Positions 7,658 through 50,800 of a stretch of DNA of 64,000 bases are shown piece by piece. The position numbers and the translations under genes were made by a program. A model generated the notes under the pieces. It was not told the DNA's origin, searched no databases, and saw nothing but the letters and a program-made list of their open reading frames with translations. Each line of letters starts with the position of its first letter. The first letter of the stretch is position 1. The stretch covers positions 2,728,001 to 2,792,000 of the forward strand of contig NZ_CP121197.1 in assembly GCF_029625215.1 (NCBI RefSeq), in the 5' to 3' direction. The stretch is from Aurantibacillus circumpalustris. GTDB lineage: Bacteria; Bacteroidota; Bacteroidia; B-17B0; Aurantibacillaceae.

Positions 7658-9763
7658 TTATTTTACAATAATTTTCTTACACATTTTAGCGCCATTCACA
7701 TGAAGATTAATAAAATATATACCAGCTGCTAACTCGGTATTTTTGTTAATTGAAATTGTGTATGAACCTTCCGAATAGGTTTTCTCGCTTTCATTTGAAA
7801 TGACTTCTCCTGTTACAGTTACCAATTCGTATTTTATTTTTGAGAAATCAGAAAGTTGGAAGCTGAGGTTTATTACGTCGCTTGTTGGATTTGGAAATAC
7901 ATTAAAAGCAACAGCTTTAGTTAAGTCATTAATTCCAACCACACCAGTGAAATTAACTTCGTCTAAATAAAACCTATTCCCAGAACCGATCCCGTCTTTA
8001 TTTTCCTGAAAGTAGAATCGAATGAGAACATTTTCTTCTGAGAGAAAAGAATAAAACTGAGGCTGTTGAGTTATGTTTCTTAGCTGCCAGTCAACAGATA
8101 AAGGATAATATAAATCAGATAGGACACCTCCAGTATTTAGAGCTAGAAAAGAATTTGTTGGAACCCAAACATCCAACCAAATACCACCACAATTTTTACT
8201 TGCCTGAACCTTAAACACATCTTTATGACTTGTTGATTGCCAAGCGTATGCGTATTTGAAAGAGAATTGCACCCCAGGATTGTTTTTAAAATCATACGAT
8301 GGACTCTCTAATATTACAATGTCGTTTGGATCAAGGAGCTCTCCGGGTACGTAGGCAGAACCTATGCCATCTGATCCGATATTATTAACAATCTCCCATT
8401 TTTTTAAGGGTGAGGTTGGGCTAACTACTTTCCATGAAGTTGGAAGCGTTACGCCTGGCCCATAAAAACTTTCTGAGTTTGTAGAAATTATTTGAGTAAC
8501 TCCATTTTGTACATTAATGGCTATTGTTTTTGAACTGCTTCCATTTGCATTGGAAACAAGACAACTCACTTGAGTTATACCTTGATTGGTAAAAAGAACG
8601 GGAGTGGTGGCTGCTGTAGGATTTACAACACTTGCTGAATTATCCGCAGTCCACAAATAGTTTGTTGGGGATGCATTGAATGTGTAACTAGCAAGACTCA
8701 AGGTTTTTCCAGAACAAACCACTAAAGCAGGATTGGCTAAAATATCTAAATCAGGAATACAGCCAACACCTGGACTAGTTATACCTGTAAAAGCTAAATT
8801 ATTTGGTGTAGATAAATTATTTCTTCCAGCAATAGGACTATTTATGGCAGTCTGCATTCTACTTGCCTGGCCAATGGTGTACATTCGTTGACAATAAGCA
8901 TAGTCCATGTAATTTTGCACATTTTCAACAATACCTGGGGTACAAATTGTAGAGTTGTTTAAATTGCAGGAAGTATAACCTTTTGTAATTGGCGTGTCAT
9001 TCACACCGTCATTTCCGCAAGCAACACCTGGTTGATTGGTTCCGCCCCAAACATGAGGTAAATTAAGCCAGTGACCAACTTCGTGTGTTAAAGCTCTAGA
9101 AGTAGCTAAATTACCAGAACCAATACTACCAACATAGCCATTTAAAATAACAATAGCATCCATAGCAGCTGGTATACCCGAGCCTGGCAGATAAGTATAA
9201 CCCGCGGCACCACCACCCATGGTTCTGACTACATAAACGTTTAAGTATCTTGTTGCCGGCCATGTGTAAGCATAATTGGAGCCACTTCCGCTCCAGTCGG
9301 TGTTTGCATCATAATGTCTAATAATGCCATTTGTACAATTACCATTTGGATCTTTTGTAGCAAGCATAAAATCAATTTGTGGATTTCCAATTAGGTGTTT
9401 AAATTGGATGACAACATCAGAAGTATCAGCGTTATCCGCATTAAAATCTCTTGTTAAAATACTCATGGCATCATTTACCTGCGCATCGCTAATGTTTTCA
9501 GATCCACCTAAATGTAAGATGTGAAAAACTACTGGAATAGTATAGTTTCCTGCAGCAGCACTCTTTCCAGCTAGTTTATAACCAGTTTTAAAAAGCTCGT
9601 TGTCTATTTCCTCTGAAACTTGCTGATGTTTCTCAAACGCTGCCTTTAGCTCGGGATGCTTAGTAAACCAGGCATTTTGCATTTCTGTTGTGTAACAATA
9701 ATTTTGTGCTGATAAAAGGTTGCAACCAAATAGTATTATCAAAGAGGATAAAAGTTTGCGCAT
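7658..9763 (-). CDS. Secreted M43 family zinc metalloprotease with T9SS sorting domain
   Basis: This 701-residue protein has a signal peptide (cleavage near residue 20). Its catalytic domain has the extended zinc motif HEVGHWLNLPH at residues 227-237 (ligands H227, H231, H237; catalytic E228). The family Gly before the third ligand is Asn here. A Met-turn region (QNYMDY) follows. A PKD-like module rich in Ser and Thr and a jelly-roll-like section lie in the middle. The last 80 residues are a T9SS type A sorting domain (VFPNPTSDVINLSF, ending in KKIIVK). It is therefore probably exported by T9SS and attached to the cell surface or released, where it cleaves proteins (pappalysin-like). It is convergent with rplY and divergent from the E1 gene. 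Confidence 0.92.
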   Translation of the reverse strand: MRKLLSSLIILFGCNLLSAQNYCYTTEMQNAWFTKHPELKAAFEKHQQVSEEIDNELFKTGYKLAGKSAAAGNYTIPVVFHILHLGGSENISDAQVNDAMSILTRDFNADNADTSDVVIQFKHLIGNPQIDFMLATKDPNGNCTNGIIRHYDANTDWSGSGSNYAYTWPATRYLNVYVVRTMGGGAAGYTYLPGSGIPAAMDAIVILNGYVGSIGSGNLATSRALTHEVGHWLNLPHVWGGTNQPGVACGNDGVNDTPITKGYTSCNLNNSTICTPGIVENVQNYMDYAYCQRMYTIGQASRMQTAINSPIAGRNNLSTPNNLAFTGITSPGVGCIPDLDILANPALVVCSGKTLSLASYTFNASPTNYLWTADNSASVVNPTAATTPVLFTNQGITQVSCLVSNANGSSSKTIAINVQNGVTQIISTNSESFYGPGVTLPTSWKVVSPTSPLKKWEIVNNIGSDGIGSAYVPGELLDPNDIVILESPSYDFKNNPGVQFSFKYAYAWQSTSHKDVFKVQASKNCGGIWLDVWVPTNSFLALNTGGVLSDLYYPLSVDWQLRNITQQPQFYSFLSEENVLIRFYFQENKDGIGSGNRFYLDEVNFTGVVGINDLTKAVAFNVFPNPTSDVINLSFQLSDFSKIKYELVTVTGEVISNESEKTYSEGSYTISINKNTELAAGIYFINLHVNGAKMCKKIIVK

Positions 9764-12414: not shown

Positions 12415-13008
12415 ATGATAGAGAATAAAAAATTAGGTATCGTTATGCTCCTTTTCGCATCTAGTTTTTCTTTTGCTCAAACCGCATCAGATAAACCATC
12501 AGAACCAGCGAAACAAGAAGATGAGTTTGCTAAAAAAAAGGTGGAAACAAAATTAACGGAGGTTGTTCCTACTGATTCTTTAGGCGTTGGTGATTTAATG
12601 AAACGCGCAATCGCTTGGACGAAATCAGAAACGGATAAATACAAGAAGACAGATGCTACAACAACAGGGAGTAAAGTTGAATGTACTGCAAGTTTTCCTG
12701 TTAAACCGAAAGAACTAAATCCCGAAGTGGATTTTAGTGGCAAGATTACTATGAAAGTAGTAATCGAATGTAAAAACAGCAAATACAGATACACCGTTTC
12801 CGAAATAAAGCACATAAGTAAAACTGGTAATACCAGTGGTGGTAGTATCGATAACGTTGTGGCAGAATGCGGAAGTATGGGCATGAATGATCAAGTTTGG
12901 AAAAAATTAAAAGGACAAGCTCTGGTTGGTGCTGGACTTGTTGTTGCAGATATTAAAATAGGAATGGGACTTATTCCTGAAGAAAATAAGGGTGAAGACG
13001 ACTGGTAG
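12415..13008 (+). CDS. Secreted DUF4468-like protein
   Basis: The protein has 197 residues with a signal peptide (cleavage after SFAQ, about residue 22) and a lysine/glutamate-rich spacer. A compact alpha/beta domain follows (about 55-170), in which LGVGDLMKRAIAW, a KVECTASF strand and a VVIECKNSKYRYTV hairpin resemble the DUF4468 (TBP-like fold) family. No catalytic residues are evident. It lies 57 bases after E1 and is closed by a UUCG-type terminator. It may be read through from E1, but a functional link to the dehydrogenase is not supported. The family assignment is by appearance only. Confidence 0.6.
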   Translation: MIENKKLGIVMLLFASSFSFAQTASDKPSEPAKQEDEFAKKKVETKLTEVVPTDSLGVGDLMKRAIAWTKSETDKYKKTDATTTGSKVECTASFPVKPKELNPEVDFSGKITMKVVIECKNSKYRYTVSEIKHISKTGNTSGGSIDNVVAECGSMGMNDQVWKKLKGQALVGAGLVVADIKIGMGLIPEENKGEDDW

Positions 13009-13037: not shown

Positions 13038-13065
13038 TTGGCAACTTCGGTTGCCAATTTTTTTT
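13038..13065 (+). terminator. Strong terminator with TTCG tetraloop
   Basis: TTGGCAAC (13038-13045), loop TTCG, GTTGCCAA (13050-13057), then eight T. This is a textbook intrinsic terminator closing the E1/DUF4468-like unit. Confidence 0.92.
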
Positions 13066-13146: not shown

Positions 13147-14835
13147 ATGCTTGAAAGTCCATTACATGAGGATCATTCGTTGCGCTTTGAAACAAACGTT
13201 TTTGGAGAATCTTATCTGGATGGTGAAAAAGCGGTAACGGTTATTTTTTATGACACTACTCATAAAAAAGTAGCTTCATTTGATTTTCAGGTAATCACAA
13301 AAGAAGAGGTGTACGATCTTATAGAAAAAGGTGATTCCCTTAATATAAGCAATAGTTATATTAAGGATTTTTCTTTAAGTGAATACCGAAAATTAAGACA
13401 GCTTGATAAACATACGAGAATCACTTTAAAAGACTTTTCAGCCCGTGGTACATTTTTTGATTGTAATCATGAAATAGATTTTAGTTATGCTGATTTTGAA
13501 GGAGAGAAAACAATTTTTGAGTCTTCTGTTTTTGCAAATGGTTTTGTAAATTTTTTCAATAGCGATTTTGGACATGGGGATGTGAATTTTCGAAAAGCAA
13601 AATTTGGAAGTGGAAGCACGAGTTTTCGTTCCGTTAAATTTGGTGATGGTCACATTACGTTTAATACAGCAAATTTTGGTGCAGGTAATTTAAGTTTTGT
13701 TGACGCTAATTTTAGTAATGGTAATGTAGATTACAAGAACACTTATTTTGGTGATGGAACTGTTGATTTTAAATTCGCTAAATTTTCGAGTGGTGACATA
13801 ACTTTTGAACGCGCCAGTTTTGGTAAGGGAGTAAAAAGTTTTAAGAATGTAGAATTTGGCGGTGGAAAAATTGATTTTAAACGGATTGATTTTAATAATG
13901 GTGACGTTTCTTTTGAAGGAGTAGAATTTGGAGATGGTAAAGTAAGTTTTAGAGGCGCTGTTTTTGGAGAAGGACGAAAAACCTTTGATAGAGCTGATTT
14001 CGCCCATGGTGAAGCCCAATTTGACCTTGTGAATTTCGGAAAAGGAACTATTAGTTTTAATCAAGCCTACGCAACAAATATTTCTTTTAGAGGATGTCAC
14101 CTCGATGCATATATTGATTTGCGGTTTGGAGAATGCCATCTATTAGATATGCGGAGTACGATTGTACGTGATATTTTAGAGGTAAAACCAGAAGGTGAAA
14201 AAGTTGTCATAAAAGAAATGATTCTTGCGGATATGAGAATTCTTGGCCGTTTATTTATTGATTGGAGAGGAAATGACGTGTATGATTTAATTTATAATCA
14301 GAAAAACACCTCCATGTTTCAAAAAGCTGAGCAGTTTAGGATTTTAAAAGAAAACTTTAGAAATAACGGTCAGTACGAAGACGAAGATGCTGCATACCTT
14401 GAATTTAGGCGCTGTGAGGCAAAAGCAAATTTGCAAGACGCACTTTCGAAAAGAGGAATAAAAGCTGTGAATGCTTATCCTATTTATTATTTTCAAAAGT
14501 ATGTATTTGATTATGTTGGTCGTTATGCCACAGCACCTACACGTGTTCTTTTAAATGCAATGCTTGCCGTGGTTTTGTACGCACTTATTTTTTATTCTTT
14601 TACTGAGTTTTTTCCGCAAATAGGAACCATCGCATCTACTTTGCCTTCCGAATTGAGTCGGGTGCACGATTTTTGGAACAGTATTTATTATAGTGCAATT
14701 ACTTTTTCTACTGTTGGCTACGGCGACTATTTTGCCGAAGGGTATTTGAAAATTTTCGCTGCCTGCGAAGGATTTACAGGAATATTTTTAATGAGTTATT
14801 TTACAGTAGCTTTTGTAAGAAAAATATTACGTTAG
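13147..14835 (+). CDS. Potassium channel with a 12-residue-repeat solenoid domain
   Basis: In this 562-residue protein, residues 1-110 form a small N-terminal region. Residues 117-308 are sixteen uninterrupted 12-residue repeats with consensus FGxGxxxFxxAx, likely a beta-solenoid related in spirit to pentapeptide repeats but with a different period. Residues about 375-440 are charged and helical. The end is a two-helix ion-channel domain: a membrane helix at about 465-485, a pore loop with the potassium selectivity filter TVGYGD at 522-527, and a second helix at about 534-556. No signal peptide is present, so the solenoid should be cytoplasmic, where it could gate the pore. It has its own transcription unit. 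Potassium selectivity is inferred from the filter; the ligand of the solenoid is unknown. Confidence 0.85.
   Translation: MLESPLHEDHSLRFETNVFGESYLDGEKAVTVIFYDTTHKKVASFDFQVITKEEVYDLIEKGDSLNISNSYIKDFSLSEYRKLRQLDKHTRITLKDFSARGTFFDCNHEIDFSYADFEGEKTIFESSVFANGFVNFFNSDFGHGDVNFRKAKFGSGSTSFRSVKFGDGHITFNTANFGAGNLSFVDANFSNGNVDYKNTYFGDGTVDFKFAKFSSGDITFERASFGKGVKSFKNVEFGGGKIDFKRIDFNNGDVSFEGVEFGDGKVSFRGAVFGEGRKTFDRADFAHGEAQFDLVNFGKGTISFNQAYATNISFRGCHLDAYIDLRFGECHLLDMRSTIVRDILEVKPEGEKVVIKEMILADMRILGRLFIDWRGNDVYDLIYNQKNTSMFQKAEQFRILKENFRNNGQYEDEDAAYLEFRRCEAKANLQDALSKRGIKAVNAYPIYYFQKYVFDYVGRYATAPTRVLLNAMLAVVLYALIFYSFTEFFPQIGTIASTLPSELSRVHDFWNSIYYSAITFSTVGYGDYFAEGYLKIFAACEGFTGIFLMSYFTVAFVRKILR
13495..14070 (+). 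repeat. Sixteen tandem 36-bp units coding 12-residue repeats
   Basis: The coding sequence repeats every 36 bases without a break. Phe is at unit position 1 in all sixteen units, Gly at position 4 in most, and Phe or Tyr at position 8. The DNA copies have diverged, so the array is old at the DNA level and conserved in protein. Confidence 0.85.
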
Positions 14836-14870: not shown

Positions 14871-14900
14871 AAAAAAACCGATTCATTCGAATCGGTTTTC
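14871..14900. terminator. Bidirectional terminator between channel and E2 genes
   Basis: AAAACCGATTC (14874-14884) pairs with GAATCGGTTTT (14889-14899) over a 4-base loop, with A and T flanks. It serves the convergent channel and E2 genes. Confidence 0.88.
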
Positions 14901-16488: not shown

Positions 16489-19400
16489 ATGCCAATGAAA
16501 AATTTCACTCTTCTTGTCTTTTTGATACTTCATCTTATATCTAAATCGCAAGTTCCGCCGGTATGTTTTAATAGTTTGGCGGTTGCCAATATCTCTACAG
16601 TCGGAATATTTCCAAGAGATGTTTGTGCAGCAGATGTTAATGGAGACGGTAAGTTGGATCTTATTACTGCGAATGAGAGTAGCAGTAATATATCTGTATT
16701 ATTCGGTTCAGGTTCAGGCACGTTTGCACCTCCTGTGAATTACCCAGTTGTTTCTGGGCCAAGATCCCTTAGCGCAGCAGATTTTAATCTAGATGGTTAT
16801 CCAGATTTGGTGGTGGCGAATATTACTTCAAATAATGTAGCAATTTTATTTGGTTCGCCTTCGGGTACGTTTGCTGCTGCTGTTAACTACAGTGCGGGGA
16901 CCAACCCTAATTGTGTGAGAGTTGGCGATTTAAATTTGGACGGTAATCTTGATTTGGTTGTGGCTAATTTTAACTCTTCCAATGTTTCAATTTTATTAGG
17001 TTCAACAAGTGGTACATTTGCTGCAGCCGTAAATTATTCGGTTGGATCGCTTCCTGTTTCTGTTTGCATTGCTGATTTAAATAATGATGGGAATTCAGAT
17101 ATTGTTGCAGCTAATTCAGGGTCTAATACGGTTTCTTTATTGTTGGGTTCTGTGAGTGGAACTTTTGCGGCTGCTGTTAATTTTACTACAGGGGGGGGGC
17201 CTTATTGTGTGAAATCATTAGATTTTAATGGCGACGGAAATATGGATCTAAGTATTTCCAACTATAACGCTTATAATCTTTCTATTTTAATGGGTACAGG
17301 TACGGGCTCTTTTGCAACCCCGGTATATTATCCCACAGGTATCGGACCAACAACACATGCGCTGGGTGATTTTAACAATGATGGGAAAACAGATGTAGCA
17401 GTTGGTAATTACAGCGGTAATAGTATTTCTTTTTTTTCTGGAATGGGCGTGGGTTCGTTTAGTTTTTCTGGGACATATCAATTAACAGATCAGCCAATAT
17501 CAATGATTGCTGCTGATTTTAACGCTGATGGAATTGCTGATATTGCTTCAGTTTCACTTCAGGGTGGAAAAGTAACAGTGATAATCAATACCGGTAACGC
17601 TACTCTGGGTGCGGCAATAATAAACGCAACGGGTAACTCGCCTTCTTCGGTTAGTGATGGGGATTTTAATTCAGATGGCTTTAAAGATTTGGTTGTTTCT
17701 AACTATGGTTCAAACAGTTTGTCAATTTTATCAGGGAATGGTGTTGGCGTTTTTTCTACCACAGCCACTTATTTTGCCAACGGAAATCCCGGACAAGCTG
17801 TGGTTGCTGATTTTAATGGAGATGGGCACAAAGATATTGCTGTAGCTAATTATGGTGGGGCAAGCGTTTCTGTATTACTGGGCACTGGAACCGGTAGTTT
17901 TGGCGCAACTACAAATTTTGCTGTGGGCCTTTTGCCTTACGGTATTGTTTCGGGTGACTTTAATTCGGATAGTAAAATAGATATTGCAGTTACGAATTTT
18001 AACTCAAATAGTATTTCTGTTTTGTTTGGACTTGGATCAGGTGGTTTTGGTGCCGCCGTAAATTATTCGGTTGGGACAAATCCCACAGGGCTTTTAGCGG
18101 CTGATTTTGATTTAGATGGTGATCTGGATTTAGCTATTACAAATAGTGGTTCTGGAAATGTATCAATTTTGAATGGATCTTCTTCTGGAGTTTTTACTGC
18201 TGGCGCAAATTACGCGTGCGGCTCTGGTCCATATGCAATTGCAACTGCCGATTTTAATGGTGATTTTATTGCGGATTTGGCAGTTGCGAATTATTCGTCA
18301 AGCAGTGTTTCTGTCCTACTTGGCTTGGGATCAGGGAGTTTTGGAACACAGGCAGCATATGTAGTTGGAGCTAATCCTGTTTCGGTGAGCGTTGGAGATT
18401 ATAATATGGATGGCATTAAAGATATTGTTGTATCAAATTATTCTAGTGCAAATATATCTGTTTTGCTAGGAACAGGAAGTTCTAGTTTTACCTCGCAAAT
18501 AAATTACTCAACAGGAACCAATCCACGTAAAGTTCTTTCATCCGATTTAAATTCGGATGGTAAACCAGATTTAGCGATAGTAAATTTGGGTTCAAACTCT
18601 TTACAAATACTATTAAACGCACATCCTACCCTTTCCCTCACTACTACTAATACAGTTTGTTTAGGTAACAGTTTAATACTAAAAGCTTCTGGCGCTGGAA
18701 CATACTCATGGAGTACTGGCGCAACAAGCCACTCTATTTCTATTACACCAAGTACAAATAGCACGTATACCGTAACTGCTAAATCATTTGGAGGATGCGC
18801 TGCAACTGCGGTTAAATCAATTACGGTAAATGCTTTGCCTTTACCAACCTTGTCTGTTAACAGTGGTACAATTTGTGTAGGACAAAGTTTTACCATTAAT
18901 CCTACAGGTGCAAGTACCTATACGTACTCTGGTGGTTCTGCTATTGTGAGTCCAACAATAGGTTCATCTTATTCTGTTAGCGGCACAAATACATTAACTG
19001 GCTGTATTTCATCTTCAGTGGTTTCCAATGTTACTGTTTTCGCGCGACCTATAGTCACGGCAAGTAGTGGAAGTATTTGTGCCGGTGAAAGTTTTACACT
19101 TGCAGTGAGTGGCGCAAGTTCATACTCTTATAGTGGAGGATCAGCAGTGGTAAGCCCAGTTACAAATACAGTATATAGCGTTATAGGAATCAGCATTGAG
19201 GGCTGTCAATCGTTGATGCCGGCGATTTCAACAGTAACAGTTGTGGCCTTGCCGATTGTTTCGGTGAATAGCGGTTCAATTTGTGCTGGACAAACATTTA
19301 CTTTGCAACCTTCGGGAGGTGTTACCTATTTCTATTCTTCGGGCAGTTCAGTTATATCTCCTACAATCACTACTTCGTATTCGGTTACAGGTACAAATAG

Positions 19401-20547
19401 TTTAGGTTGCACATCATCGCCCGCAAGTATAAGCCAGGTTACAGTACATGATTTACCTGTAATTTCCGCAAATGATGGAACCGTTTGTGCGGGTAAAGCT
19501 TTTACACTTGCGCCTTCAGGTGCTTTGTCTTACACTTTTTCTAATGGAAATTCAGTTGTATACCCTTTGTTTACTACTTCTTACTCCATAACAGGAACTA
19601 GTGTAGCTGGGTGTATTTCTGCATTTCCAGCAATTAGTAATGTTGCTGTAAATCCTTTACCAGTAATTGTTATATCAGGAAATAATTCAGTGTGTGACGG
19701 ATCACCAATAAGTCTTATTGGCAGCGGAACAGCAACCAATTACACCTGGAGTGTTATTAATGTTACGGGTAACCTGATTACCGTTTATCCGTCAAGTTCA
19801 ACAACCTATACTTTGCAAGGTACTAACAGTTATGGTTGCACTTCCTCAGTAACTAAATTAATTACAGTGTTGCCTTTACCTATAATAACATTAAATAGTG
19901 GCACAATTTGTCAAGGCGCCACTTTCACACTTAATCCTATTGGTGGAATAACTTATACATACTCTAGTGGCTCGCCACTTGTTTCACCACTTGTAACAAA
20001 TGTTTATACCGTTACTGGTACTGACGCGAACGCCTGCGTTGGTAAAACCACCAGCACGGTTACGGTATTGCAAGCACCGGCGATAAATGTTGTAGCCGAT
20101 AAATCGGAGATATGTTTAGGAGAAACTATTTTTTTGCACGGTTTAGGAGCCACGTTTTATGTGTGGAGTAATGGACAGTATTCTGCTTCTATTAATGTTA
20201 GCCCAACAGTAACATCTACCTATACAGTAGAAGGTGTAGATAACAATAGTTGTACAAACGATGCAAGTATTACAGTCTTTGTAAACGAATGTGTAGGTGT
20301 TGCGAATGGTTTAGCTAATGTTAAGAGATTATTTGTATTTCCAAATCCAAGTTCTGGAGAGTTTTTTGTTGAAAGTTCTGATCAAATTCAATTACTAATA
20401 ACTAATGCATTAGGTCAAATTATCTTAAGAATGGAAGTAAGTCAAGGGATAAATAAAATTGATTTAGCTGATTATTCAAGCGGTGTTTATTTTATTCTAC
20501 ATAAAAAAGGTTCTCTAACTGAAACAATAAAATTGATTAAGAATTAA
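16489..20547 (+). CDS. Giant FG-GAP/VCBS and Ig-like surface protein with T9SS sorting domain
   Basis: This 1352-residue protein has a signal peptide ending near ISKSQ. Fourteen FG-GAP/VCBS units follow (about residues 40-705), each with a calcium-binding-like loop such as DVNGDGKLD or DFNSDGFKD, suggesting propeller domains. Eight related Ig-like modules (about 710-1260) begin with an xICxGxxFTL strand and end near a conserved Cys. The T9SS type A sorting domain closes the protein (VFPNPSSGEFFVES, ending LIKN). It is probably a surface adhesin. The first Met (16489) or the Met two codons later could start it; the latter gives a more typical signal peptide. A run of nine G (17191-17199) encodes Gly-Gly-Gly in frame. 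Confidence 0.9.
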   Translation: MPMKNFTLLVFLILHLISKSQVPPVCFNSLAVANISTVGIFPRDVCAADVNGDGKLDLITANESSSNISVLFGSGSGTFAPPVNYPVVSGPRSLSAADFNLDGYPDLVVANITSNNVAILFGSPSGTFAAAVNYSAGTNPNCVRVGDLNLDGNLDLVVANFNSSNVSILLGSTSGTFAAAVNYSVGSLPVSVCIADLNNDGNSDIVAANSGSNTVSLLLGSVSGTFAAAVNFTTGGGPYCVKSLDFNGDGNMDLSISNYNAYNLSILMGTGTGSFATPVYYPTGIGPTTHALGDFNNDGKTDVAVGNYSGNSISFFSGMGVGSFSFSGTYQLTDQPISMIAADFNADGIADIASVSLQGGKVTVIINTGNATLGAAIINATGNSPSSVSDGDFNSDGFKDLVVSNYGSNSLSILSGNGVGVFSTTATYFANGNPGQAVVADFNGDGHKDIAVANYGGASVSVLLGTGTGSFGATTNFAVGLLPYGIVSGDFNSDSKIDIAVTNFNSNSISVLFGLGSGGFGAAVNYSVGTNPTGLLAADFDLDGDLDLAITNSGSGNVSILNGSSSGVFTAGANYACGSGPYAIATADFNGDFIADLAVANYSSSSVSVLLGLGSGSFGTQAAYVVGANPVSVSVGDYNMDGIKDIVVSNYSSANISVLLGTGSSSFTSQINYSTGTNPRKVLSSDLNSDGKPDLAIVNLGSNSLQILLNAHPTLSLTTTNTVCLGNSLILKASGAGTYSWSTGATSHSISITPSTNSTYTVTAKSFGGCAATAVKSITVNALPLPTLSVNSGTICVGQSFTINPTGASTYTYSGGSAIVSPTIGSSYSVSGTNTLTGCISSSVVSNVTVFARPIVTASSGSICAGESFTLAVSGASSYSYSGGSAVVSPVTNTVYSVIGISIEGCQSLMPAISTVTVVALPIVSVNSGSICAGQTFTLQPSGGVTYFYSSGSSVISPTITTSYSVTGTNSLGCTSSPASISQVTVHDLPVISANDGTVCAGKAFTLAPSGALSYTFSNGNSVVYPLFTTSYSITGTSVAGCISAFPAISNVAVNPLPVIVISGNNSVCDGSPISLIGSGTATNYTWSVINVTGNLITVYPSSSTTYTLQGTNSYGCTSSVTKLITVLPLPIITLNSGTICQGATFTLNPIGGITYTYSSGSPLVSPLVTNVYTVTGTDANACVGKTTSTVTVLQAPAINVVADKSEICLGETIFLHGLGATFYVWSNGQYSASINVSPTVTSTYTVEGVDNNSCTNDASITVFVNECVGVANGLANVKRLFVFPNPSSGEFFVESSDQIQLLITNALGQIILRMEVSQGINKIDLADYSSGVYFILHKKGSLTETIKLIKN

Positions 20548-29381: not shown

Positions 29382-31358
29382 TTATTTTTGTATTACAATT
29401 TTCTTGTGAACAATTCCTGCCTCTGAACTTACATTTATAAGGTATGTTCCATTTGACAAGGAACTCACGTCTATAATTTGTTTAGAGTTTGCAAGAATAT
29501 GTTTCTCAAACACTTTTTCTCCCATAATGTTATAAATGAGTATAGTGTTTTCTTTTAATCCTTTTCCATTTGAATTAACTTCAAGAACAAATTCACCGTT
29601 ATTAGGATTTGGATAGATATTTATCAAATCACTCACTAGTGTTTGGTTTTTAATGCCAGTAGCAAAAGATTGTCTGATGTTAACAGTAATCATATCATTT
29701 GTCTCACTTGAACGGAAAATACCAGCTACATAACAGTAGGTAGCAGTAACAGTACCACACGAAACACTTACTGTTACGCAAGTAGAATAAGTTCCTGCAG
29801 CTGAATAGGTGTGGGTTGGGTATAAAGATGTTGTATATGTACCATCTCCCCAGTACCAGGTAGCATTAGTAATATTGGACGGGTAGGATGGATAAGAATA
29901 CCAGGTTAAAGCTGTTGTAGTGTCTTTGGTAAGCGTGTAAACCACAGTTGGTGCACATGGTGTAACGGAGCCGCTTACATTAGTAATGAGAACTGAATCA
30001 CACTTAGTACTTGTACAAAATGCAGTCACAGAATTTGTGATTGTAAGACAAATAACTTTAGGGCCATTAGCTGTATAAGTATGCGCTGGTGTTAAACCAG
30101 TTCCAGTAGAACCATCTCCAAAATTCCAATAATAAATAGTTCCAGCAAGTGTACCTGTAGAAGTGCTTGCAAAATTCGCGGAACCGTTAGCTCCTAACAC
30201 AGAAGTGAAGTTAGCGTTGCATGGTGTAGTGCTCGATGTAACGTTAGAGATTACAAACGTATTACAGAATGAGCTTGTACAATTGTTTGTGGCATTTGAA
30301 ATTGTGAGACAAACCGTTTTAGTTCCGTTTGAGGTATAAACATATGTTGGTGTTAAGCCTGAACCAAGGGATAAACCAACAAAATTCCATGAATAAATTG
30401 TACCAGCCGTTGTACCAGTAGAAGTGCTGGCAAAATTCACTGAACCATTAGATCCAATGGTATAATTAAAGTTAGCGTTGCAAGGTGAGGTGCTTGCGGT
30501 GACATTAGAAATTACCACCGAGTAACACATGGTGTTGGAACAGCTATTTGGTGCAGCTGTGTTAGACACCATGGTCAGACATACCGGGTAAGTTCCATTC
30601 GAACTAAACGTGTACGTTGGAGCAATACCAGCTCCAGAGCCAGAGCTTCCAAAATTCCATCCATAATAACTGCTACCAGTTGTACCTGTAGAGGTGCTTA
30701 CAAAATTTACTGATCCGTTGGCGCCAGTTTGATAACTAAAATTAGCATTACAAAGTGTTGTGCTTGTCGGGACATTGGTAATTAATACTGAGTCACATTT
30801 TGTGTTTGTACAAAATGGACTTACAGAATTTGTGATAGTAAGACAAACGTACTTATTCCCATTAGACGTATAAGTGTGTGCTGGTGTTATGCCAGTTCCA
30901 GTTGATCCATCTCCGAAATTCCAATTATAAATGGTTCCAGCAACTGTACCGGTTGAAGTGCTTATAAAATTTACTGACCCATTTGACCCAGTTACATAAG
31001 TGTAATTTGCGCTACAAGGTGTTGTAGTAATATTGTTTACTGAAATCGTTTGAGTTGTATTTATTGAGCAGGTTGGTGCGGTAGTAGAAATGCCAAATGT
31101 TACCGAGTAAGTGCCATTTGCGCTATAAGTTGCCGAAGCGCTAGTCGAATTCGGACCAACAACATTTGAGCTGCCTAAGAAATACCAGAAATAAGACGTT
31201 GTTGAATTAGTTGGTGAGGCTGAGCCAGTAAAGATAACCATACCGTTGGGGCCTAATGTGTAGGTAAAGCTAGCAGTACATTGTGCCTCTACACTCTGTA
31301 TCCCAGAAAAGAACAACGAGATGAAGAGTAATTTTGCTGCATACGTAAATTTTTTCAT
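29382..31358 (-). CDS. PKD-repeat T9SS surface protein, last gene of sigma cassette 1
   Basis: The protein has 658 residues. A signal peptide (cleavage after VEAQ, residue 26) is followed by six PKD-like modules of about 85-88 residues, each starting near a Cys (CNANF, CSANY) and carrying the WNFGDGSTGTG-type core. The middle four are close copies, so the coding DNA is repetitive. A T9SS type A sorting domain ends it (IYPNPNNGEFVLEV ... KKIVIQK). It is probably a surface adhesin or filament. The final PKD module closely resembles that of 41142-43088 (WYWGDG ... YSAAGTYSTCVTVSVSCG), so the two are paralogues. A candidate ECF promoter lies 65 bases upstream. Confidence 0.9.
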   Translation of the reverse strand: MKKFTYAAKLLFISLFFSGIQSVEAQCTASFTYTLGPNGMVIFTGSASPTNSTTSYFWYFLGSSNVVGPNSTSASATYSANGTYSVTFGISTTAPTCSINTTQTISVNNITTTPCSANYTYVTGSNGSVNFISTSTGTVAGTIYNWNFGDGSTGTGITPAHTYTSNGNKYVCLTITNSVSPFCTNTKCDSVLITNVPTSTTLCNANFSYQTGANGSVNFVSTSTGTTGSSYYGWNFGSSGSGAGIAPTYTFSSNGTYPVCLTMVSNTAAPNSCSNTMCYSVVISNVTASTSPCNANFNYTIGSNGSVNFASTSTGTTAGTIYSWNFVGLSLGSGLTPTYVYTSNGTKTVCLTISNATNNCTSSFCNTFVISNVTSSTTPCNANFTSVLGANGSANFASTSTGTLAGTIYYWNFGDGSTGTGLTPAHTYTANGPKVICLTITNSVTAFCTSTKCDSVLITNVSGSVTPCAPTVVYTLTKDTTTALTWYSYPSYPSNITNATWYWGDGTYTTSLYPTHTYSAAGTYSTCVTVSVSCGTVTATYCYVAGIFRSSETNDMITVNIRQSFATGIKNQTLVSDLINIYPNPNNGEFVLEVNSNGKGLKENTILIYNIMGEKVFEKHILANSKQIIDVSSLSNGTYLINVSSEAGIVHKKIVIQK

Positions 31359-38506: not shown

Positions 38507-40612
38507 ATGCAAAGCAAAATTTATAAATTAGTATCAAGTGCAAAGCAAGGTTTACTTGCATTTGTATTGACCGTATTTTTGAGTACGGTATATTCACAAA
38601 CATATACTCTCAGTTACACAGGGGGTACGCAAACCCTTATGATTCCTACGACTGGTAATTATAGAATAGAGTGCTGGGGTGCCGATGGTGGAGATGTAAC
38701 TGCAGGACCTGGCGGTGGTGGCAAAGGTGGTTATTCAACGGGAGAGTTCAACGTAACAACCCCTGGAATTGTACTAAATATCTTGGTGGGCGGTAAAGGT
38801 GGTTCAGCCAGCGGAACCGGAAGCCCTGCTGGGGCAGGCGGCTGGAACGGCGGCGGCGGCGGCGGTACTATCGGGAGATCAGGAGGCGGTGGTGGTGGTG
38901 GTACAGATGTTCGCTTGGGTGGACTATCAGCCTCAAATAGAATCATAGTTGCCGGTGGTGGTGGTGGTGCTGCATACTATAGTTTATTGGCAGCAGGAGG
39001 TAATGGCGGTGGTGTAATTGCACAGAATGGAGATGTTATTAGCAGCGGTAATGTTGTTACCACTGGTGGTGGTGGCGCAGGCGCAAATGGTGGTTCTCCG
39101 GGTTTATCTTCTACTGGTTATATTCCTACAAATGGTACGGCTACTGGCGGTGGAGGTGGCGGGAATAGTCCAGGTGTCGGAGTTGGGCAACCAGGTGTTG
39201 GTGGTGGAGCAGGTGGAGCAGGCGGAGCAGGTGGAAGCGGTTCTACAGGTAGTTCTGCTGGTGGTGGTGGCGGCTTTGCAGGCGGAGCTGGTGGAACGCA
39301 AACTGGTAATATGGGTTCAGCTGGTGGCGGCGGTTCAGGCTTCATTGGTGGTGTAAGTAATGGTACAACAGTTGCCTTGGGTCAAACTGGTTTTGTTCCC
39401 AATCCCGATCTTATAGGAAACGGCAAGGTTATTATAACTAGGTTATGTAACATTTCCATTTTTCCTTCTCAAAATCCTATGTGTATTGGTAACACGATCA
39501 CTTTAACTTCAGATGCTTTAAGCGGTATTACCTGGTTTTCAGGATCAAACGCTCCTTCAATAAACGTTAATCCAACGGTAACTACAACTTACTCTATGGT
39601 AGGTACGAGTACTGTTATAATAAGTACAGGTACCATTAATTGCATTGCCAAAAGTTTTATTACGGTAACAGTTAACCCTTTGCCTGTGCTCAGCATCGTC
39701 GCATTTCCAACAGTGGCCTGTTCTGGCGGAACATCCTCTTTAACTGGTCTTGGAGCGTCTTCGCCGACTTCGTATTCATGGAGCAACGGCATGAATGGTG
39801 TACAGACAGCTACGGTTATCCCAACTGGAAATACCACTTATACCCTCACAGGTGTCAATAATTTCGGATGTACAAACACGCAAACTATAGAGCTGGTGGT
39901 TAATACCAATATATTAACTGTTAATCAGAGTACTACAGCAATTTGTTCTGGACAATCGGCTAACATTACAGCCAACGGCGCTGTTACCTATACCTGGAGT
40001 AACGGTTTGATGTTTCAAACCATTCCTGTAACACCAACCATAACAACTATCTACACAGTTATAGCAACAGATCTGAATAATTGTAGTATCAGCAATTCGT
40101 TAACACTCACAGTATTTAATAACCCTACAGTGTCGATCACATCAGATAAAACTGACTTATGCAAAGGCGAATCGATCACGCTCACAGGTGCAGGAGCAAC
40201 CAGTTATTCCTGGAGTACCAATGTTCAAACACCATCGGTTGTATATACTTTACCTTCAGATATCACTTATTATTATTCGGTGATAGGTACTGGTGCTAAC
40301 GGTTGTTCGAGTATGGCGAGTTTTTCAATTGCGGCATCAAAATGCGCAGGCATCAATGAAACAGCTAATTTTAACTCAGTAGTTGGAATTTATCCTAACC
40401 CGGGCAATGGCCAGTTTAATATCTCTACCTCACAAGTAACAGATTATTTAAATTTGAAAGTTTATAACGCTTTGGGTATGCTCGTAAAAAGCCAGCAGAT
40501 CTTATCGACTGAAAGTAAACTTGATCTTGTAAATGAAACCAACGGGATTTATTTCGTTAATATTTGCGATCAGAATAACGTTATTAAAATGATCAAAATA
40601 GTTAAACAGTAA
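38507..40612 (+). CDS. Glycine-rich and Ig-like T9SS surface protein
   Basis: This 701-residue protein has a signal peptide ending near VYSQ (residue 31). Residues about 35-315 are a glycine-rich domain with many GGGG runs and the YRIECWGADGGDV entry, resembling the Gly_rich family also seen in ALK/LTK-type receptors. Four Ig-like modules with conserved Cys follow (about 320-615). A T9SS type A sorting domain ends the protein (IYPNPGNGQFNIST ... KIVKQ). The glycine domain gives a local GC-rich stretch (38690-39350). It lies 90 bases after a T9SS gene with similar final modules, so the two may be co-transcribed. Role: probable surface adhesion. Confidence 0.9.
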   Translation: MQSKIYKLVSSAKQGLLAFVLTVFLSTVYSQTYTLSYTGGTQTLMIPTTGNYRIECWGADGGDVTAGPGGGGKGGYSTGEFNVTTPGIVLNILVGGKGGSASGTGSPAGAGGWNGGGGGGTIGRSGGGGGGGTDVRLGGLSASNRIIVAGGGGGAAYYSLLAAGGNGGGVIAQNGDVISSGNVVTTGGGGAGANGGSPGLSSTGYIPTNGTATGGGGGGNSPGVGVGQPGVGGGAGGAGGAGGSGSTGSSAGGGGGFAGGAGGTQTGNMGSAGGGGSGFIGGVSNGTTVALGQTGFVPNPDLIGNGKVIITRLCNISIFPSQNPMCIGNTITLTSDALSGITWFSGSNAPSINVNPTVTTTYSMVGTSTVIISTGTINCIAKSFITVTVNPLPVLSIVAFPTVACSGGTSSLTGLGASSPTSYSWSNGMNGVQTATVIPTGNTTYTLTGVNNFGCTNTQTIELVVNTNILTVNQSTTAICSGQSANITANGAVTYTWSNGLMFQTIPVTPTITTIYTVIATDLNNCSISNSLTLTVFNNPTVSITSDKTDLCKGESITLTGAGATSYSWSTNVQTPSVVYTLPSDITYYYSVIGTGANGCSSMASFSIAASKCAGINETANFNSVVGIYPNPGNGQFNISTSQVTDYLNLKVYNALGMLVKSQQILSTESKLDLVNETNGIYFVNICDQNNVIKMIKIVKQ

Positions 40613-41141: not shown

Positions 41142-43088
41142 CTAATGATAGATCACCATTCGTTTTGTGGTCTTCAGGTTGCCGCTTTCCAAAGTCACCA
41201 GATACATGCCTGGCAAGAGATTGCCGGCGAGGACAGTTGGACTTGAATTCGATTCAATAAATTGAGTGTGTACAATGCGCCCAGCAAGATCGCTGATGAC
41301 AATTCGAACGGCTTCAGTAGTATTAAGATTTAGTTTAAATTCTCCTGTATTTGGATTTGGTACAATACTCCAGTTAAGCTGCCCGTTAGTTTCTACAGAT
41401 GTTAAGCCGGAGATAAGTTCTGGTGCTGTTACATTCACTTCAAGGATCATGGCTTCTTGAGTAGTGCGGTAAACGCTGTAAGACGTGCAGGAAGTAGATG
41501 TATCACCACAAGAAACCGTAACAGAAAGACAAATGTTGTACATACCCGCAGCTGAGTATTGGTGGGAGGTGTAGAGTGTGTTGGAAGAGGATCCATCTCC
41601 CCAGTTCCAGCTGGCCGAGCTTATATTCCAAGGGTAATTTGGTATAACATTCCAAACCTGTGCAGTTCCGGTTGGAACCATTGAAAAATTTGAATTCGCT
41701 GAACAGGCAACTCCAGAAACATTTAAGGACTGAATGACACTGTCCGTGCAAAAGATTCCAGATATTCCAGTTGGTTTTGTTATTTTTAGTTTAACGAAGT
41801 AGGCACCACCAAAAAGGTAGTTGTGAGTAGGATTCTGAAGTGTGGAAGTGTTACCGTCGCCGAAGTTCCAATAAAAGGTTGTGTTATTACTCGTGTTGGA
41901 AGACATGTCATTAAAAATAGCCTGCCCACCAGTTAAGGTGTGCGCAAACGCTGCCGCAGGCCCAATATTAACATTAATGGTTGAAGTAGCGGTGCAGCCA
42001 TTGTTCATATCCATCACGGTCATTGTATAAATACCTGAGGTTTGTGCGGTATAGGTACTGCTCAATGCTAACGTAGATTGCGATGGTGAGGGCGGGATCC
42101 ATAAATAACCTGCCACAACTAAGTTAGTTGGAAATGGAGAATTTGAAGGTATACCAGTCATACTTTGGTTGGTAAGAACAACGGTATGTTGACACGAGGT
42201 GGGTGACATATTGCTAGCTATTGCAGCGATTGGTGGAAATGTATTTTGATACATCGGAATAATGGTCGTGCTTGTACAAGCGTTGTTAAGATCTGTTACT
42301 GTAAGGGTGTAATTGTCAATTAACGTCGTTGTTGGTGCTGCAGAATTTGTATTTATAGTGATGGTATTTGCCGCAATATAATTAGGCGTGCTAATAAAAC
42401 TCCATAAATAGGAAACATTTGGCGTACTGCTATTTCCTTGCAATTGAACCGAAGGTACATTACAATCTAATATTTGTTGTGGGACTGTTGCACTGATGTT
42501 TGGAGCTGCGGTATTTTGCGTAATAGTAAACGGTGTTTGTGTTGTACAAAAATTAACATTGTCTCTTACTGCCACAGTGTAAACACCTGTAGCATTAACC
42601 GTGTATACCGATAGCGACGATAAAGTGCCTGTGGGCATAATACCAGAGCCACCGGGAATTAAAAGTGTATAGCTAACCGCACCACCAGCTACTGGCGAAG
42701 TGTTTGCACCATTTATGCTTACCACGCAAAAACTTTTTGAGCCGCAGCCAAGCGTGTAGGCCTGAGGAGAGCTAAGTGAATAACTTGTTCCGTTTACGTA
42801 TACCAAAACTGTGTTAGAGGTAGTTACAACAGCTGAATTACTATTAGTGCCAGTTACGTATAATGTGTAACTAGTAGCAGCAGCAGGTGCTACTGCAAAC
42901 GTTGCATTTGTGGAAGTAAGCCCGCCGGGATTCATGGAGTAGGTGGGACTCGATAAATTTAAGCTGTTTACCGCGGTCACCGCAGCGTTGCCGCCATTGC
43001 ATATTGAAACGGTTGTCTGGGCGTTCCCTTGCGAGGCAAATGCTGCTAACAAGAGTAGTGATGTATTTCTGATAATTTTTTTTCTCAT
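41142..43088 (-). CDS. PKD-repeat T9SS surface protein, last gene of sigma cassette 2
   Basis: From the Met at 43088 (MRKKIIRNTS) it has 648 residues with a normal signal peptide ending at GNAQ. A Met at 43133 would add 15 residues before the signal and is possible, since the candidate promoter ends 28 bases before it. Several Ig/PKD-like modules follow, including two clear PKD cores (FYWNFGDGNTS and SWNWGDGSSS). A T9SS type A sorting domain ends the protein (IVPNPNTGEFKLNL ... KRMVIYH). The last PKD module is homologous to that of the cassette 1 protein (29382-31358). Probable surface adhesin. Confidence 0.88.
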   Translation of the reverse strand: MRKKIIRNTSLLLLAAFASQGNAQTTVSICNGGNAAVTAVNSLNLSSPTYSMNPGGLTSTNATFAVAPAAATSYTLYVTGTNSNSAVVTTSNTVLVYVNGTSYSLSSPQAYTLGCGSKSFCVVSINGANTSPVAGGAVSYTLLIPGGSGIMPTGTLSSLSVYTVNATGVYTVAVRDNVNFCTTQTPFTITQNTAAPNISATVPQQILDCNVPSVQLQGNSSTPNVSYLWSFISTPNYIAANTITINTNSAAPTTTLIDNYTLTVTDLNNACTSTTIIPMYQNTFPPIAAIASNMSPTSCQHTVVLTNQSMTGIPSNSPFPTNLVVAGYLWIPPSPSQSTLALSSTYTAQTSGIYTMTVMDMNNGCTATSTINVNIGPAAAFAHTLTGGQAIFNDMSSNTSNNTTFYWNFGDGNTSTLQNPTHNYLFGGAYFVKLKITKPTGISGIFCTDSVIQSLNVSGVACSANSNFSMVPTGTAQVWNVIPNYPWNISSASWNWGDGSSSNTLYTSHQYSAAGMYNICLSVTVSCGDTSTSCTSYSVYRTTQEAMILEVNVTAPELISGLTSVETNGQLNWSIVPNPNTGEFKLNLNTTEAVRIVISDLAGRIVHTQFIESNSSPTVLAGNLLPGMYLVTLESGNLKTTKRMVIYH

Positions 43089-43161
43089 AAGATTTAATTT
43101 GAGAGTAATGCGTTCGTGAATCTTCGATTTCATAATTTATTTTTTTAGGGTTCCTACTTTT

Positions 43162-47804: not shown

Positions 47805-50800
47805 ATGAGATTTTTTCTTTTAACCGTTCTTTCCGTTTTCTTTTTAAAAATTAATTCGCAATCTCTCGCAAACTACTCTACCACAAGAAATACAGGAGTT
47901 ACTTATGCGTCTATTAACCTTACAGGATCCTCTTTTCCCTCTTGGAGAAATTCAACATCTTTCACTCAAGATGATAACCGATCTGATTTTACGAATATTG
48001 GTTTCGATTTTTGGTACGACGGTACACGTTATACACAGTTTTGTGTATCAACAAATGGATTTCTTGATTTCTCTTCTTCTACAGATGACGGTGGAGCACA
48101 AGGTGACGATTTTGGTTATTCGAATGCTGCATTAACAACTGCAAACGCAGCAAACGCTACCAGACCAGCAATTGCACCGTTTTATGATGATTTAACCGCA
48201 CAAGGTGGAACCAGTGCTTTATCAAACAGTCTAAAATATTCTTTGTCTGGTTCGGCACCAAATAGAACATTAACGGTTGAATGGATAAACATGGCAGTAT
48301 ACAATAATGTTACGCCAAGTCTTAATTTTCAGGTAAAATTGGTTGAAGGTACTGGGAAAATTATTGTCCACTATGGCGTAATGAACTCTGGTAATAATAC
48401 CTTTTCATATTCAATGGGAATTAACGGACCTACAATGTCCAACACCCCAACAAGTGCACAATTAAAAGAATTACAAGCAGCAAATGGTAATAGTTTTAGT
48501 AATGCAGTTCAAAATAATTTATCTGCAATGCCTGCCGCGTCTTCTCAATATATCTTTACACCTGTTGTACCAACTGCGGTTTCAGGTAACTTAACTTTTT
48601 CTGGAGTTTCGCAAACTGCTATTACTTTAAATTGGCCTAACTGGGCAAGTAACGAGGTTGGTTATGTCGTTTATAATTCAACCGATGGAGTTAACTACGA
48701 TTTCGTTACCCAAACTACTGCCAACGCTACAAGTTATGCTGCTACTGGTTTGTTGCCTTCTACAACTTATTTTTGGCGCCTTTATGCAGTAACAGAAGGC
48801 TGTTTGAGTTCGCCTTTATCTGGCTCTCAAATAACAAACCCAGCTGGCAATAAAGTTTCTAATTCAACTGGAAACTGGAATACAGCAGGGATATGGACTC
48901 CAAATGGCGTTCCAACTGCAGCTGATAATGTAACTATCGCCAATGGGCACGTTGTAAGTATTAATGCAAGCGGACAATGTAACAATTTAATAGTTGGTCA
49001 GGGTGGCGCAAGTACTCTACAATTCAGTGGTAATACTAATCGCACGTTAGTAGTTAATAATAATATCACGGTTAACAATGCCGGTGTTTTTACGCTAATG
49101 TCTAGCTCTAATGCTACACACAGCGTTACTTTGGAAGGAAACATGACTAATAACGGTACAATTAATTTTGCTCTTAATGCAAATAATGGCAGTGTTGATG
49201 TTTTGTTTGATAAAGACGGTACTCAAACTGTAAGCGGAACGGGTGCTACCACAAGTTTTAATAGAATCAATGTGAGTTTAGGAACTGAGATCACAAACAC
49301 ACTAAATATAACGAGTTCAAATTTTTCAGCTGCAAGTAATTTTCTTGATTTAACTGCAGGTACTCTTAAGATCTCTACAACAAATGCAGTTAATATAACT
49401 CCATTCACAGCCGCTGTAACAGTATCAGCTAATACAGGGATAATTCTAAACGCATCGAATCTAACAGTTAATACCGGTGCGGGCGTGACATTGTTTGGGG
49501 AAATAAATTTAGTAAATGGAATTCTAAATATTGGTAATGCAGCAGATGAAGATTTGAATTCTAATGGTGGTACTATTAGTGTTTCTGGCGGAACTTTAAA
49601 TATTGCCGGTAAACTCGACGGTTCTGGAATAAATAACATCTGTGATTTTAATATTAGTGGTGGTGTGGTTGTGGTTCCTACTTTTGGTTCAACAAATACA
49701 ACAATAGCACCTTTCCATATTTCTAGTCCAGGCTCCCAGTGTAATATGACCGGTGGAACTATCGTTATTCAGAGAGAAGGCGGCACGGGAGCTCAAGATC
49801 TTGGTTTTACAAATACCGGAACAAGTGGGGCTATTGTAACTGGTGGCACCTTGCAAATTGGTAACGGTTCTACACCTGCAGCACAGATAATGAATATGAA
49901 TACAGATAATCAAATACAAAATTTGGTAATCAGTAGTGCAAATGTTACAGTACGTTTAATTACTAATCCGCTAATAGTTGGAGATAATATCAATATTCTA
50001 TCAGGTACTTTAAACGCAAATAATCTTGGTATAAGTTTAGGTGGAAATTGGAGTAACGCAGGCACTTATACACCTGGAACTGGAACCCTTACATTTAATG
50101 GCTCTGGAGCACAAACAATTTTTAAATCGGGTGGAGAAATAGTTAATGCCCTAACTTTTAGCGGAAGCGGAACTAAAACATTTTTATCTCCCGTTACAGC
50201 TAATAGTAGCTTTTCAATCTCTTCAGGTGTAACTGTTGATGTAAATACTTCAAATTTCGGATTAACAGTAAAAGGAAACTTTACTAATAACGGTACATTT
50301 AATGCAAGAAATGGTTTACTAACCTTAAACGGAACTAGCGCTCAAAGTATTGGTGGATCTAGCACAACCGATTTTTTTGACATAACTTTAAATAATTCTA
50401 CAGGAGCGTCTTTGAGTAACGCCGAAAATTTAAAAGGAACCTTAACACTCACAAGTGGCGCGTTTAATGCAAATGGTCAAATATTTACAATGATATCTGA
50501 TGCTACCAATACAGCGCGAATTGCTCAAATCACCGGAGGAGATTATTTAGGAAATGTTACTATACAGCGCTTTGCTCCCGGAGGAACTACCGGTTGGGCG
50601 TTTTTAGGATCTCCAATTTCTTCAGCATTAACTCTAAATGATTGGGATGACAACATGGCGATAAGTTGCGCAACATGTCCTGATGGAAACGCAGGAGGCT
50701 TCCTGTCAATCTATACATACAATGAGGCTGTACCTGGCGTTTACGATGCACCTGCTTCTTATGTACCGCTGAGTACAATTAATGATCCTATTGTTGCTGG

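What the first reader, a model, noticed from the sequence alone, without database searches (positions are those of the whole stretch)
13147..14835. Potassium channel fused to an exact 12-residue solenoid
Seen: sixteen contiguous 12-residue units (FGxGxxxFxxAx) at residues 117-308, then a two-helix pore with TVGYGD. Known: pentapeptide-repeat proteins fused to ion channels exist, but their period is 5. Inference: a 12-residue period implies a different coil geometry, and a cytoplasmic solenoid N-terminal to the pore could be a new gating module.
Basis: partly seen in the sequence, partly recalled or inferred. Interest (0 to 1): 0.65.

Follow-up and report, generated by a model that had tools for sequence, protein, structure and literature searches.

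The report
Potassium channel with pentapeptide-type solenoid
A bacterial gene makes a potassium channel carrying a long coiled protein rod on its inner side; the rod looks like a stretched version of a known repeat fold, and I found no study of this channel family.

Summary
In detail: residues 117-308 of the 562-aa ORF are sixteen 12-residue units with no spacing error, followed by a TVGYGD two-helix pore. A different coil geometry is not supported. Two units (24 residues, sides of 5 and 7 alternating) seem to make one turn of a pentapeptide-repeat-type four-sided beta-helix: AlphaFold models (pLDDT 89-95), Foldseek/VIA matches to HetL, Np275, QnrB1 and MfpA, array lengths of 191-193 or 215-216 residues and none near 204, and conservation that correlates at 24 but not 12 residues; charge and hydropathy do not show this. 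The same 12-mers occur in Streptomyces proteins named pentapeptide-repeat, and pentapeptide/pore fusions with a similar linker occur in haloarchaea and Aeromonas. So: a new variant of a known, uncharacterised architecture. Best mechanism: a tetrameric K+ channel gated through its cytoplasmic solenoid by an unknown ligand. One unexpected lead: the full-length model's best Foldseek hit is HalA, the channel of Hailong anti-phage defence.

The parts
13147..14835 (+). whole ORF, 562 aa solenoid-K+ channel; probably its own transcription unit
   Evidence: terminator-like hairpins at 13038-13057 and 14874-14899 on either side (3 found in the region against 1.1 +- 1.2 in shuffles)
13147..13479 (+). 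residues 1-111: N-terminal domain (strands 13-23, 27-35, 41-49; helices 52-61 and 77-83) ahead of the solenoid; no convincing Pfam match
   Evidence: AlphaFold DSSP; Pfam, (only a sub-threshold KH match, E 0.005)
13495..14070 (+). residues 117-308: sixteen 12-residue units FGxGxVxFxxAx, read as 8 coils of 24 residues
   Evidence: against: DSSP shows no alternation
14071..14274 (+). residues 309-376: further, degenerate beta strands of the solenoid (CHLDAYIDLRF..., conserved D324, R326, R341, D342)
   Evidence: strands; conservation
14278..14517 (+). residues 378-457: helical linker, similar to that of a haloarchaeal pentapeptide-channel protein
   Evidence: hhalign 151 columns from residue 387 to 559, probability 97.5%
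14536..14610 (+). residues 464-488: TM1 (outer helix)
14668..14727 (+). residues 508-527: pore helix and selectivity filter TVGYGD (522-527)
14746..14829 (+). residues 534-561: TM2 (inner helix); protein ends one residue later (VRKILR-stop), no C-terminal regulatory domain

Best explanation
The gene encodes a two-helix K+-selective channel subunit that should assemble as a tetramer. Its N-terminal 460 residues stay in the cytoplasm and form a right-handed, four-sided beta-helix of the pentapeptide-repeat type, in which 5-residue and 7-residue sides alternate so that each turn is 24 residues (two 12-residue units). Long helices join the last coil to the outer pore helix. Because the chain ends immediately after the inner helix, regulation should come through the N-terminal side: four solenoids would hang below the pore, and a ligand or partner bound to them, or their packing on each other, would open or close the pore through the helical linker. 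Shown: sequence anatomy, family, fixed repeat number, filter. Predicted: the fold. Inferred: tetramer, cytoplasmic location, K+ selectivity, gating. Unknown: ligand and physiological trigger.
For: Filter T[VI]G[YF]G[DE] in 79 of 79 rows of A3 (TIGYGD 56, TVGYGD 15, TIGYGE 4, TIGFGD 2, TVGFGD 2) and C-terminus K[IV]LR in 79 of 79; in the 79 loci read the frame ends right behind it. Ion_trans_2 in 79 of 79. AlphaFold: 562 aa, pLDDT 89.4, pTM 0.78, two long C-terminal helices and a pore helix; solenoid alone pLDDT 94.8, pTM 0.90. Solenoid-alone Foldseek: ranks 1-34 are pentapeptide-repeat proteins or designed solenoids that I recall as pentapeptide-like (4yfo E 4.7e-5, HetL 3du1 5.4e-5, Np275/276 2j8k 1e-3, then QnrB1, MfpA, EfsQnr, AlbG), 9 with E <= 0.001. 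VIA: HetL Z 19.8, rmsd 2.8 A, 223 of 237 residues over 280 model residues, i.e. about 23.6 model residues per 20-residue HetL coil. The array is 191-193 residues in 52 and 215-216 in 27 of 79 rows, near 204 in none; the long group is one clade, one change. Residual conservation correlates at 24 residues (r 0.23, permutation p 0.002; 52 16-unit rows r 0.33, p printed 0.000) and not at 12 (-0.05, -0.03). In the full model longer strands begin at 194, 218, 242, 266 and 289.
Against: No experiment. Monomer prediction only; I had no coordinates, so handedness and number of sides are read from alignments to solved helices. Foldseek TM-scores are low (TMq 0.18-0.28 for ranks 1-10) and VIA ranks an unrelated tailspike helix (Sf6, Z 19.9) level with HetL, so the fold match alone does not prove kinship. 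In the solenoid-alone model the strands repeat every 12 without the alternation seen in the full model. The length evidence is one evolutionary event. Of 48 lag tests conservation at 24 stands out, but it is absent at 48, charge peaks at 36 residues (p 0.007; 0.015) and hydropathy at 48 (p 0.042; 0.003); the odd/even contrast of conservation is p 0.006 in all rows but 0.063 in the 16-unit rows. The window protein itself matches no pentapeptide model. Kyte-Doolittle at a cut of 1.6 flags TM1 only. Gate and ligand are inferred.
Confidence: 0.6

Rival explanations
1. A HalA-like nucleic-acid-gated channel: the solenoid binds an inhibitory or activating oligonucleotide, and loss or arrival of it opens the pore as a defence or damage response.
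For: Full-length model: the only Foldseek match with E <= 0.001 in the PDB library is HalA bound to oligodeoxyadenylate (9nyi_A, E 3.1e-5, probability 1.00, 405 columns, TMt 0.40). [quoted passage not shown] In the 18-unit clade 20 of 27 loci carry, upstream on the same strand, a gene of one BLAST cluster whose one scanned member (L092) is a PD-(D/E)XK nuclease, E 9e-34.
Against: No sequence link: the linker profile does not find HalA, nor does the window protein, and HalA is not in the 50 rows shown for the solenoid alone. rmsd 12.2 A, TMq 0.26. I saw no nucleotidyltransferase among the recurrent neighbours, which look housekeeping by my reading of their first residues, but most neighbours were not scanned for domains. 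The nuclease gene was not found in the held flanks of any of the 52 16-unit members, the window's included, and is missing from 7 of 27 18-unit loci, some of them short. PADLOC scan of five proteins is empty, but that library (2023) is older than the Hailong paper.
Confidence: 0.12
2. A constitutive or osmolarity-responsive K+ channel in which the solenoid is a passive spacer or scaffold (for example an anchor to another protein), not a gate.
For: No partner gene recurs in the 16-unit clade and the window gene seems to stand alone. The few pentapeptide proteins of known function act by binding other proteins (PMC8145042, passages).
Against: Linker residues are invariant: Q396 F397 L400 K401 G408 Y410 E413 D414 Y417 R422 in 29 of 29 rows of A2, six of these (K401 G408 E413 D414 Y417 R422) also in 79 of 79 of A3, as expected of a coupling element; the number of units is nearly frozen, unlike loose spacers. 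Neither point excludes a scaffold.
Confidence: 0.2
3. A new 12-residue-per-turn solenoid (two-sided, insect-antifreeze-like).
For: Sequence period is exactly 12; strands in the solenoid-alone model recur every 12.
Against: and the conservation test point to 24 per turn.
Confidence: 0.05

Closest known systems
Pentapeptide-repeat proteins (HetL 3DU1, Np275/276 2J8K, QnrB1 2XTW, MfpA 2BM4-7); Pfam PF00805, PF13576, PF13599
   Same: Predicted parallel beta-helix that aligns with HetL over 223 of 237 residues; 15 of 79 members match PF13576 at E <= 0.01.
   Different: Sides alternate 5 and 7 residues, 24 per coil instead of 20; FGxG corner; the window protein itself matches no pentapeptide model.
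Streptomyces plasmid 'pentapeptide repeat-containing' proteins with FSGGxVxFxxAx arrays (WP_153182134, WP_329212241)
   Same: Same 12-residue unit, 15 and 14 pattern matches, all 12 apart but one gap of 24; the second is 34% identical over 278 residues to the window protein; PF13576 E 1e-31 and 8e-17.
   Different: No K+ pore match in Pfam, hydrophobic N-terminus instead (by eye). Similarity between arrays of like composition does not prove common descent.
Pentapeptide-repeat/K+ pore fusions of haloarchaea (WP_233340543, WP_081461395) and of an Aeromonas caviae record (NZ_AP026896)
   Same: Repeat domain, helical linker, two-helix pore, chain ends right after the inner helix (by eye); Pentapeptide and Ion_trans_2 over cut-offs; hhalign of A3 with the Haloprofundus protein from linker to C-terminus, probability 97.5%; Aeromonas pore 47 of 136 identical.
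   Different: True 5-residue repeats; N-terminal parts were not compared.
HalA, ion channel of Hailong anti-phage defence (PDB 9NYI)
   Same: Best Foldseek match of the full-length model; described as an ion channel blocked by poly-dA (passage).
   Different: No sequence similarity found, no neighbouring nucleotidyltransferase seen. The primary paper was not held, so HalA's domain make-up is recalled, not checked.
Inward-rectifier channels (Kir7.1, 9pr5)
   Same: Best sequence match of the pore in the PDB, profile E 3.7e-6, including the ...FVxKIxR end of TM2.
   Different: No C-terminal cytoplasmic domain after TM2; the extra domain is N-terminal.

Membership tests
Two-helix K+ channel pore (Pfam Ion_trans_2) | TxGYGD-type filter and Ion_trans_2 profile | tested here: met
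   79 of 79 members; window E 2.3e-13
Two-helix K+ channel pore (Pfam Ion_trans_2) | tetramer, K+ selectivity | not testable with these tools
   needs electrophysiology or structure
Pentapeptide-repeat protein | at least eight contiguous 5-residue repeats, four per coil (PMC8145042, abstract start) | tested here: not met
   period 12; 24 per coil
Pentapeptide-repeat protein | right-handed quadrilateral beta-helix | tested here: inconclusive
   prediction and alignment to HetL support it; other right-handed helices score as high in VIA and no coordinates were inspected
Pentapeptide-repeat protein | Pfam pentapeptide model over cut-off | tested here: inconclusive
   window no; 15 of 79 at E <= 0.01; relatives in G039, G048, G055, G083 reach the cut-off, two of them only with neighbouring matches added
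Hailong HalA | HalA fold (soluble domain plus ion channel) | tested here: inconclusive
   Foldseek E 3.1e-5 but rmsd 12.2 A, TMq 0.26; no sequence match
Hailong HalA | adjacent HalB nucleotidyltransferase | tested here: inconclusive
   window neighbours read as a dehydrogenase E1, a 197-aa protein without Pfam match and an acyltransferase E2 (names by my reading; for the 197-aa one); recurrent neighbours in 81 loci include none that I recognised, but most were not scanned for domains
Kir channel | C-terminal cytoplasmic Kir domain | tested here: not met
   chain ends after TM2 in the window and in 79 loci read
12-residue antifreeze-type two-sided helix | 12 residues per turn | tested here: inconclusive
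   speak for 24; strands recur at 12; no experimental structure

The most novel reading that the evidence does not exclude
The family works like HalA without being its homologue by sequence: its 24-residue-coil solenoid is a nucleic-acid (or nuclease-state) sensor that holds a K+ pore shut, in one clade encoded beside the addAB-like recombination nuclease it watches, and its opening collapses the membrane potential during phage attack or DNA damage.
Probability: 0.1. Interest if true: 0.78.

Novelty: new variant of a known kind. Interest (0 to 1): 0.4.

Why it matters
The precise function of only a handful of pentapeptide-repeat proteins is known, and the 2021 review searched here has no occurrence of 'channel'. 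A solenoid wired to a K+ pore turns the question 'what does this solenoid bind?' into a current measurement. The nearly frozen length (16 units, 18 in one clade) and the 5+7 alternation also give a natural example of how a four-sided helix might tolerate longer sides.

Tried and rejected
Twelve residues per turn: judged unlikely, though the strands of the solenoid-alone model recur at 12. Chance or low-complexity array: rejected. Phage origin: neither repeat region nor linker plus pore has a tblastn match at E <= 1e-3 in 50,697 phage records. Defence gene: PADLOC scan of five proteins empty; neighbourhoods look housekeeping. Second copy in the genome: at E <= 0.1 the repeat profile hits only this gene; one other Ion_trans_2 gene exists elsewhere. 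Repeat profile in 198 genomes of the phylum: only the own genome matched; the listed genomes are all 100% complete, and the alignment behind the profile (A4, 34 of the 56 windows computed) was put out of register by MAFFT (84 columns), so the miss is weak. The first genome-contig scan with the single protein found nothing. HalA in the PDB by sequence: not among 38 hits of the window protein or 6 of the linker profile; not in the best 60 shown of 251, 209 and 236 hits for the family profile and two other channel proteins. HalA is also not among the 50 VIA rows shown for the full model, which excludes nothing. Of eight relatives scanned singly, one matched Pentapeptide_3. Papers: ten searches; no listed title or abstract start concerns a 12-residue-repeat K+ channel or a pentapeptide/Ion_trans_2 fusion, but most subscription papers are not held. 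PMC13123833 (knotted solenoid): abstract and opening paragraphs seen, set aside because it concerns Brevundimonas proteins. Periodicity by charge (36) and hydropathy (48) speaks against a simple 24-residue reading.

Full report
Observation. The ORF at 13147-14835 (+) encodes 562 residues. Residues 117-308 are sixteen 12-residue units without a single insertion or deletion; F is at position 1 in 16 of 16 units and F/Y at position 8 in 16 of 16, but only 7 of 16 fit the literal FG.G...F..A.. Shuffling never came near this (maximum 11 F in one register of 12 in 10,000 shuffles, 16 observed). The units are 35% identical on average as protein and 52% as DNA and TRF sees no DNA repeat, so the array looks old. 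Behind it come two predicted membrane helices around TVGYGD, Pfam Ion_trans_2 E 2.3e-13.

The family. Of 41 genomes near the window's, 13 hold a near-full-length match (own genome included) and 3 more a partial or pore-only one; among the 24 other genomes of the genus 11 have it near full length, so it is patchy. Of 295 genomes of the class, 18 hold a match of 500 residues or more, own included, and 21 others match in the C-terminal part only. A scan of one genome for each of 84,980 species gave 311 stretches that encode a relative, of which the best 80 were kept; record titles are mostly Bacteroidota assemblies, with two labelled Chlorobiota and one Saccharibacteria. All 79 rows of A3 have the filter and end K[IV]LR, and in the 79 loci read the frame ends right there.

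Repeat number. The stretch aligned to residues 117-308 is 191-193 residues in 52 of 79 rows and 215-216 in 27; none is near 204. A tree built without the array puts the 27 long ones in one clade, support 99/97, one change. So the only change of number seen is of two units, and the number is otherwise frozen at identities down to 39%. This is one event, so on its own it is modest evidence that two units are the structural unit.

Fold. AlphaFold on A3 gives pLDDT 89.4, pTM 0.78; the solenoid alone (residues 95-380) 94.8 and 0.90. In the full model longer strands begin at 194, 218, 242, 266 and 289; in the solenoid-alone model short strands recur every 12 with no alternation. Foldseek with the solenoid alone puts pentapeptide-repeat structures and designed solenoids at ranks 1-34, 9 of all matches with E <= 0.001 (that the 4y-/5d-series designs are pentapeptide-like is my recall, and the Aeromonas pentapeptide protein matches them at E down to 5.7e-15). 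HetL aligns over 223 of its 237 residues at 2.8 A, Z 19.8, to a model span of 280 residues: about 24 model residues for each 20-residue HetL coil. TM-scores are low (TMq 0.18-0.28 at ranks 1-10) and a phage tailspike helix ties with HetL in VIA, so I do not rest kinship on the fold alone. A separate test: after removing the mean for each position in the unit, conservation correlates between units two apart (r 0.23, p 0.002; 0.33, p printed 0.000, in the 52 16-unit rows) but not between neighbours (-0.05, -0.03) nor four apart (-0.04, -0.08); charge peaks at three units (p 0.007, 0.015), hydropathy at four (p 0.042, 0.003); the odd/even contrast of conservation is p 0.006 and 0.063 (all, four properties, six lags, two sets). 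I read this as support for 24, not proof. The picture that fits: each side of the helix carries an inward [A/V]xF, corners alternate between two residues (as in pentapeptides) and four (FGxG), so sides of 5 and 7 alternate and a turn is 24.

What is already known. The 12-residue unit is not unique: tblastn of the repeat region finds 75 plasmid records, 65 of them Streptomyces; 33 of the 40 rows listed are annotated pentapeptide repeat-containing protein. Two were read: 15 and 14 matches to the unit pattern, all at spacing 12 but one gap of 24, PF13576 E 1.4e-31 and 8.3e-17. In the family itself 15 of 79 match PF13576 at E <= 0.01, and relatives in four genomes reach its cut-off, two of them only with neighbouring matches added; the window protein does not match. 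Nor is the fusion unique: two haloarchaeal proteins and one Aeromonas ORF have true pentapeptides, a helical linker, a two-helix pore and the same abrupt end, and a profile comparison with the Haloprofundus protein runs from the linker to the C-terminus (probability 97.5%). The pentapeptide review searched here has no occurrence of 'channel' (term search and passages), and no listing of my ten paper searches shows a study of such fusions.

How it probably works. The chain ends at the inner helix, so unlike RCK- or Kir-type channels (recalled) there is nothing C-terminal to gate it; the gate would be driven from the N-terminal solenoid through the helical linker, ten of whose residues are invariant in the 29 rows of A2 and six of these in the 79 rows of A3. 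In the window the gene lies between terminator-like hairpins (3 found against 1.1 +- 1.2 in shuffles), next to genes that read as unrelated housekeeping, so the trigger is more likely a small molecule, ion or nucleic acid than a co-encoded partner. This part is inference.

A lead. The full-length model has one Foldseek match below E 0.001 in the PDB: HalA with oligodeoxyadenylate (9nyi_A, E 3.1e-5, TMq 0.26, rmsd 12.2 A). [quoted passage not shown] PMC12265719 (three passages) calls oligodeoxyadenylate a signal that negatively regulates immune activation in Hailong. The primary paper (Tan et al. 2025) is not held. No sequence similarity was found. I recognised no nucleotidyltransferase among recurrent neighbours, but most were not scanned. 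In the 18-unit clade 20 of 27 loci have, upstream on the same strand, a gene of one cluster whose scanned member is a PD-(D/E)XK nuclease; in 14 it is the immediate neighbour, in several behind a radical-SAM gene and a gene with marginal UvrD-like and Cas4-like matches; 'addAB-like' is my reading. None of the 52 16-unit rows has it in the flank held. I keep the nucleic-acid-gated channel as the most novel reading at 0.1.

Verdict. A real, conserved, uncharacterised K+ channel family with an unusual but classifiable solenoid: new variant of a known kind, interest 0.4.

Noticed in passing
L085, L091, L092, L094, L095, L100, L102, L107, L110, L111, L113, L115, L123, L124: 18-unit relatives lie directly downstream of a gene of one cluster (PD-(D/E)XK nuclease in the one member scanned) on the same strand, often behind radical-SAM and UvrD-like genes; not found beside 16-unit relatives.
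   Followed up: partly
L035:1495-3048(-), L036:1495-3114(-), L034:382-1800(+): Further Bacteroidia proteins with other N-terminal domains and the same kind of C-terminal pore (Ion_trans_2 over the cut-off in L035, just under it in L036); a wider group of such channels seems to exist.
   Followed up: partly
window 7658-9763, 16489-20547, 29382-31358, 38507-40612, 41142-43133: Five large proteins with a secretion-system sorting tail (Por_Secre_tail), among them an FG-GAP protein with 13 matched stretches and an M43 peptidase.
   Followed up: no
window 47805-52439: 1544-aa ORF without any Pfam match at E <= 1e-6.
   Followed up: no
window 12415-13008: 197-aa ORF just upstream without a Pfam match at E <= 0.001; separated from the channel by a terminator-like hairpin.
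   Followed up: no
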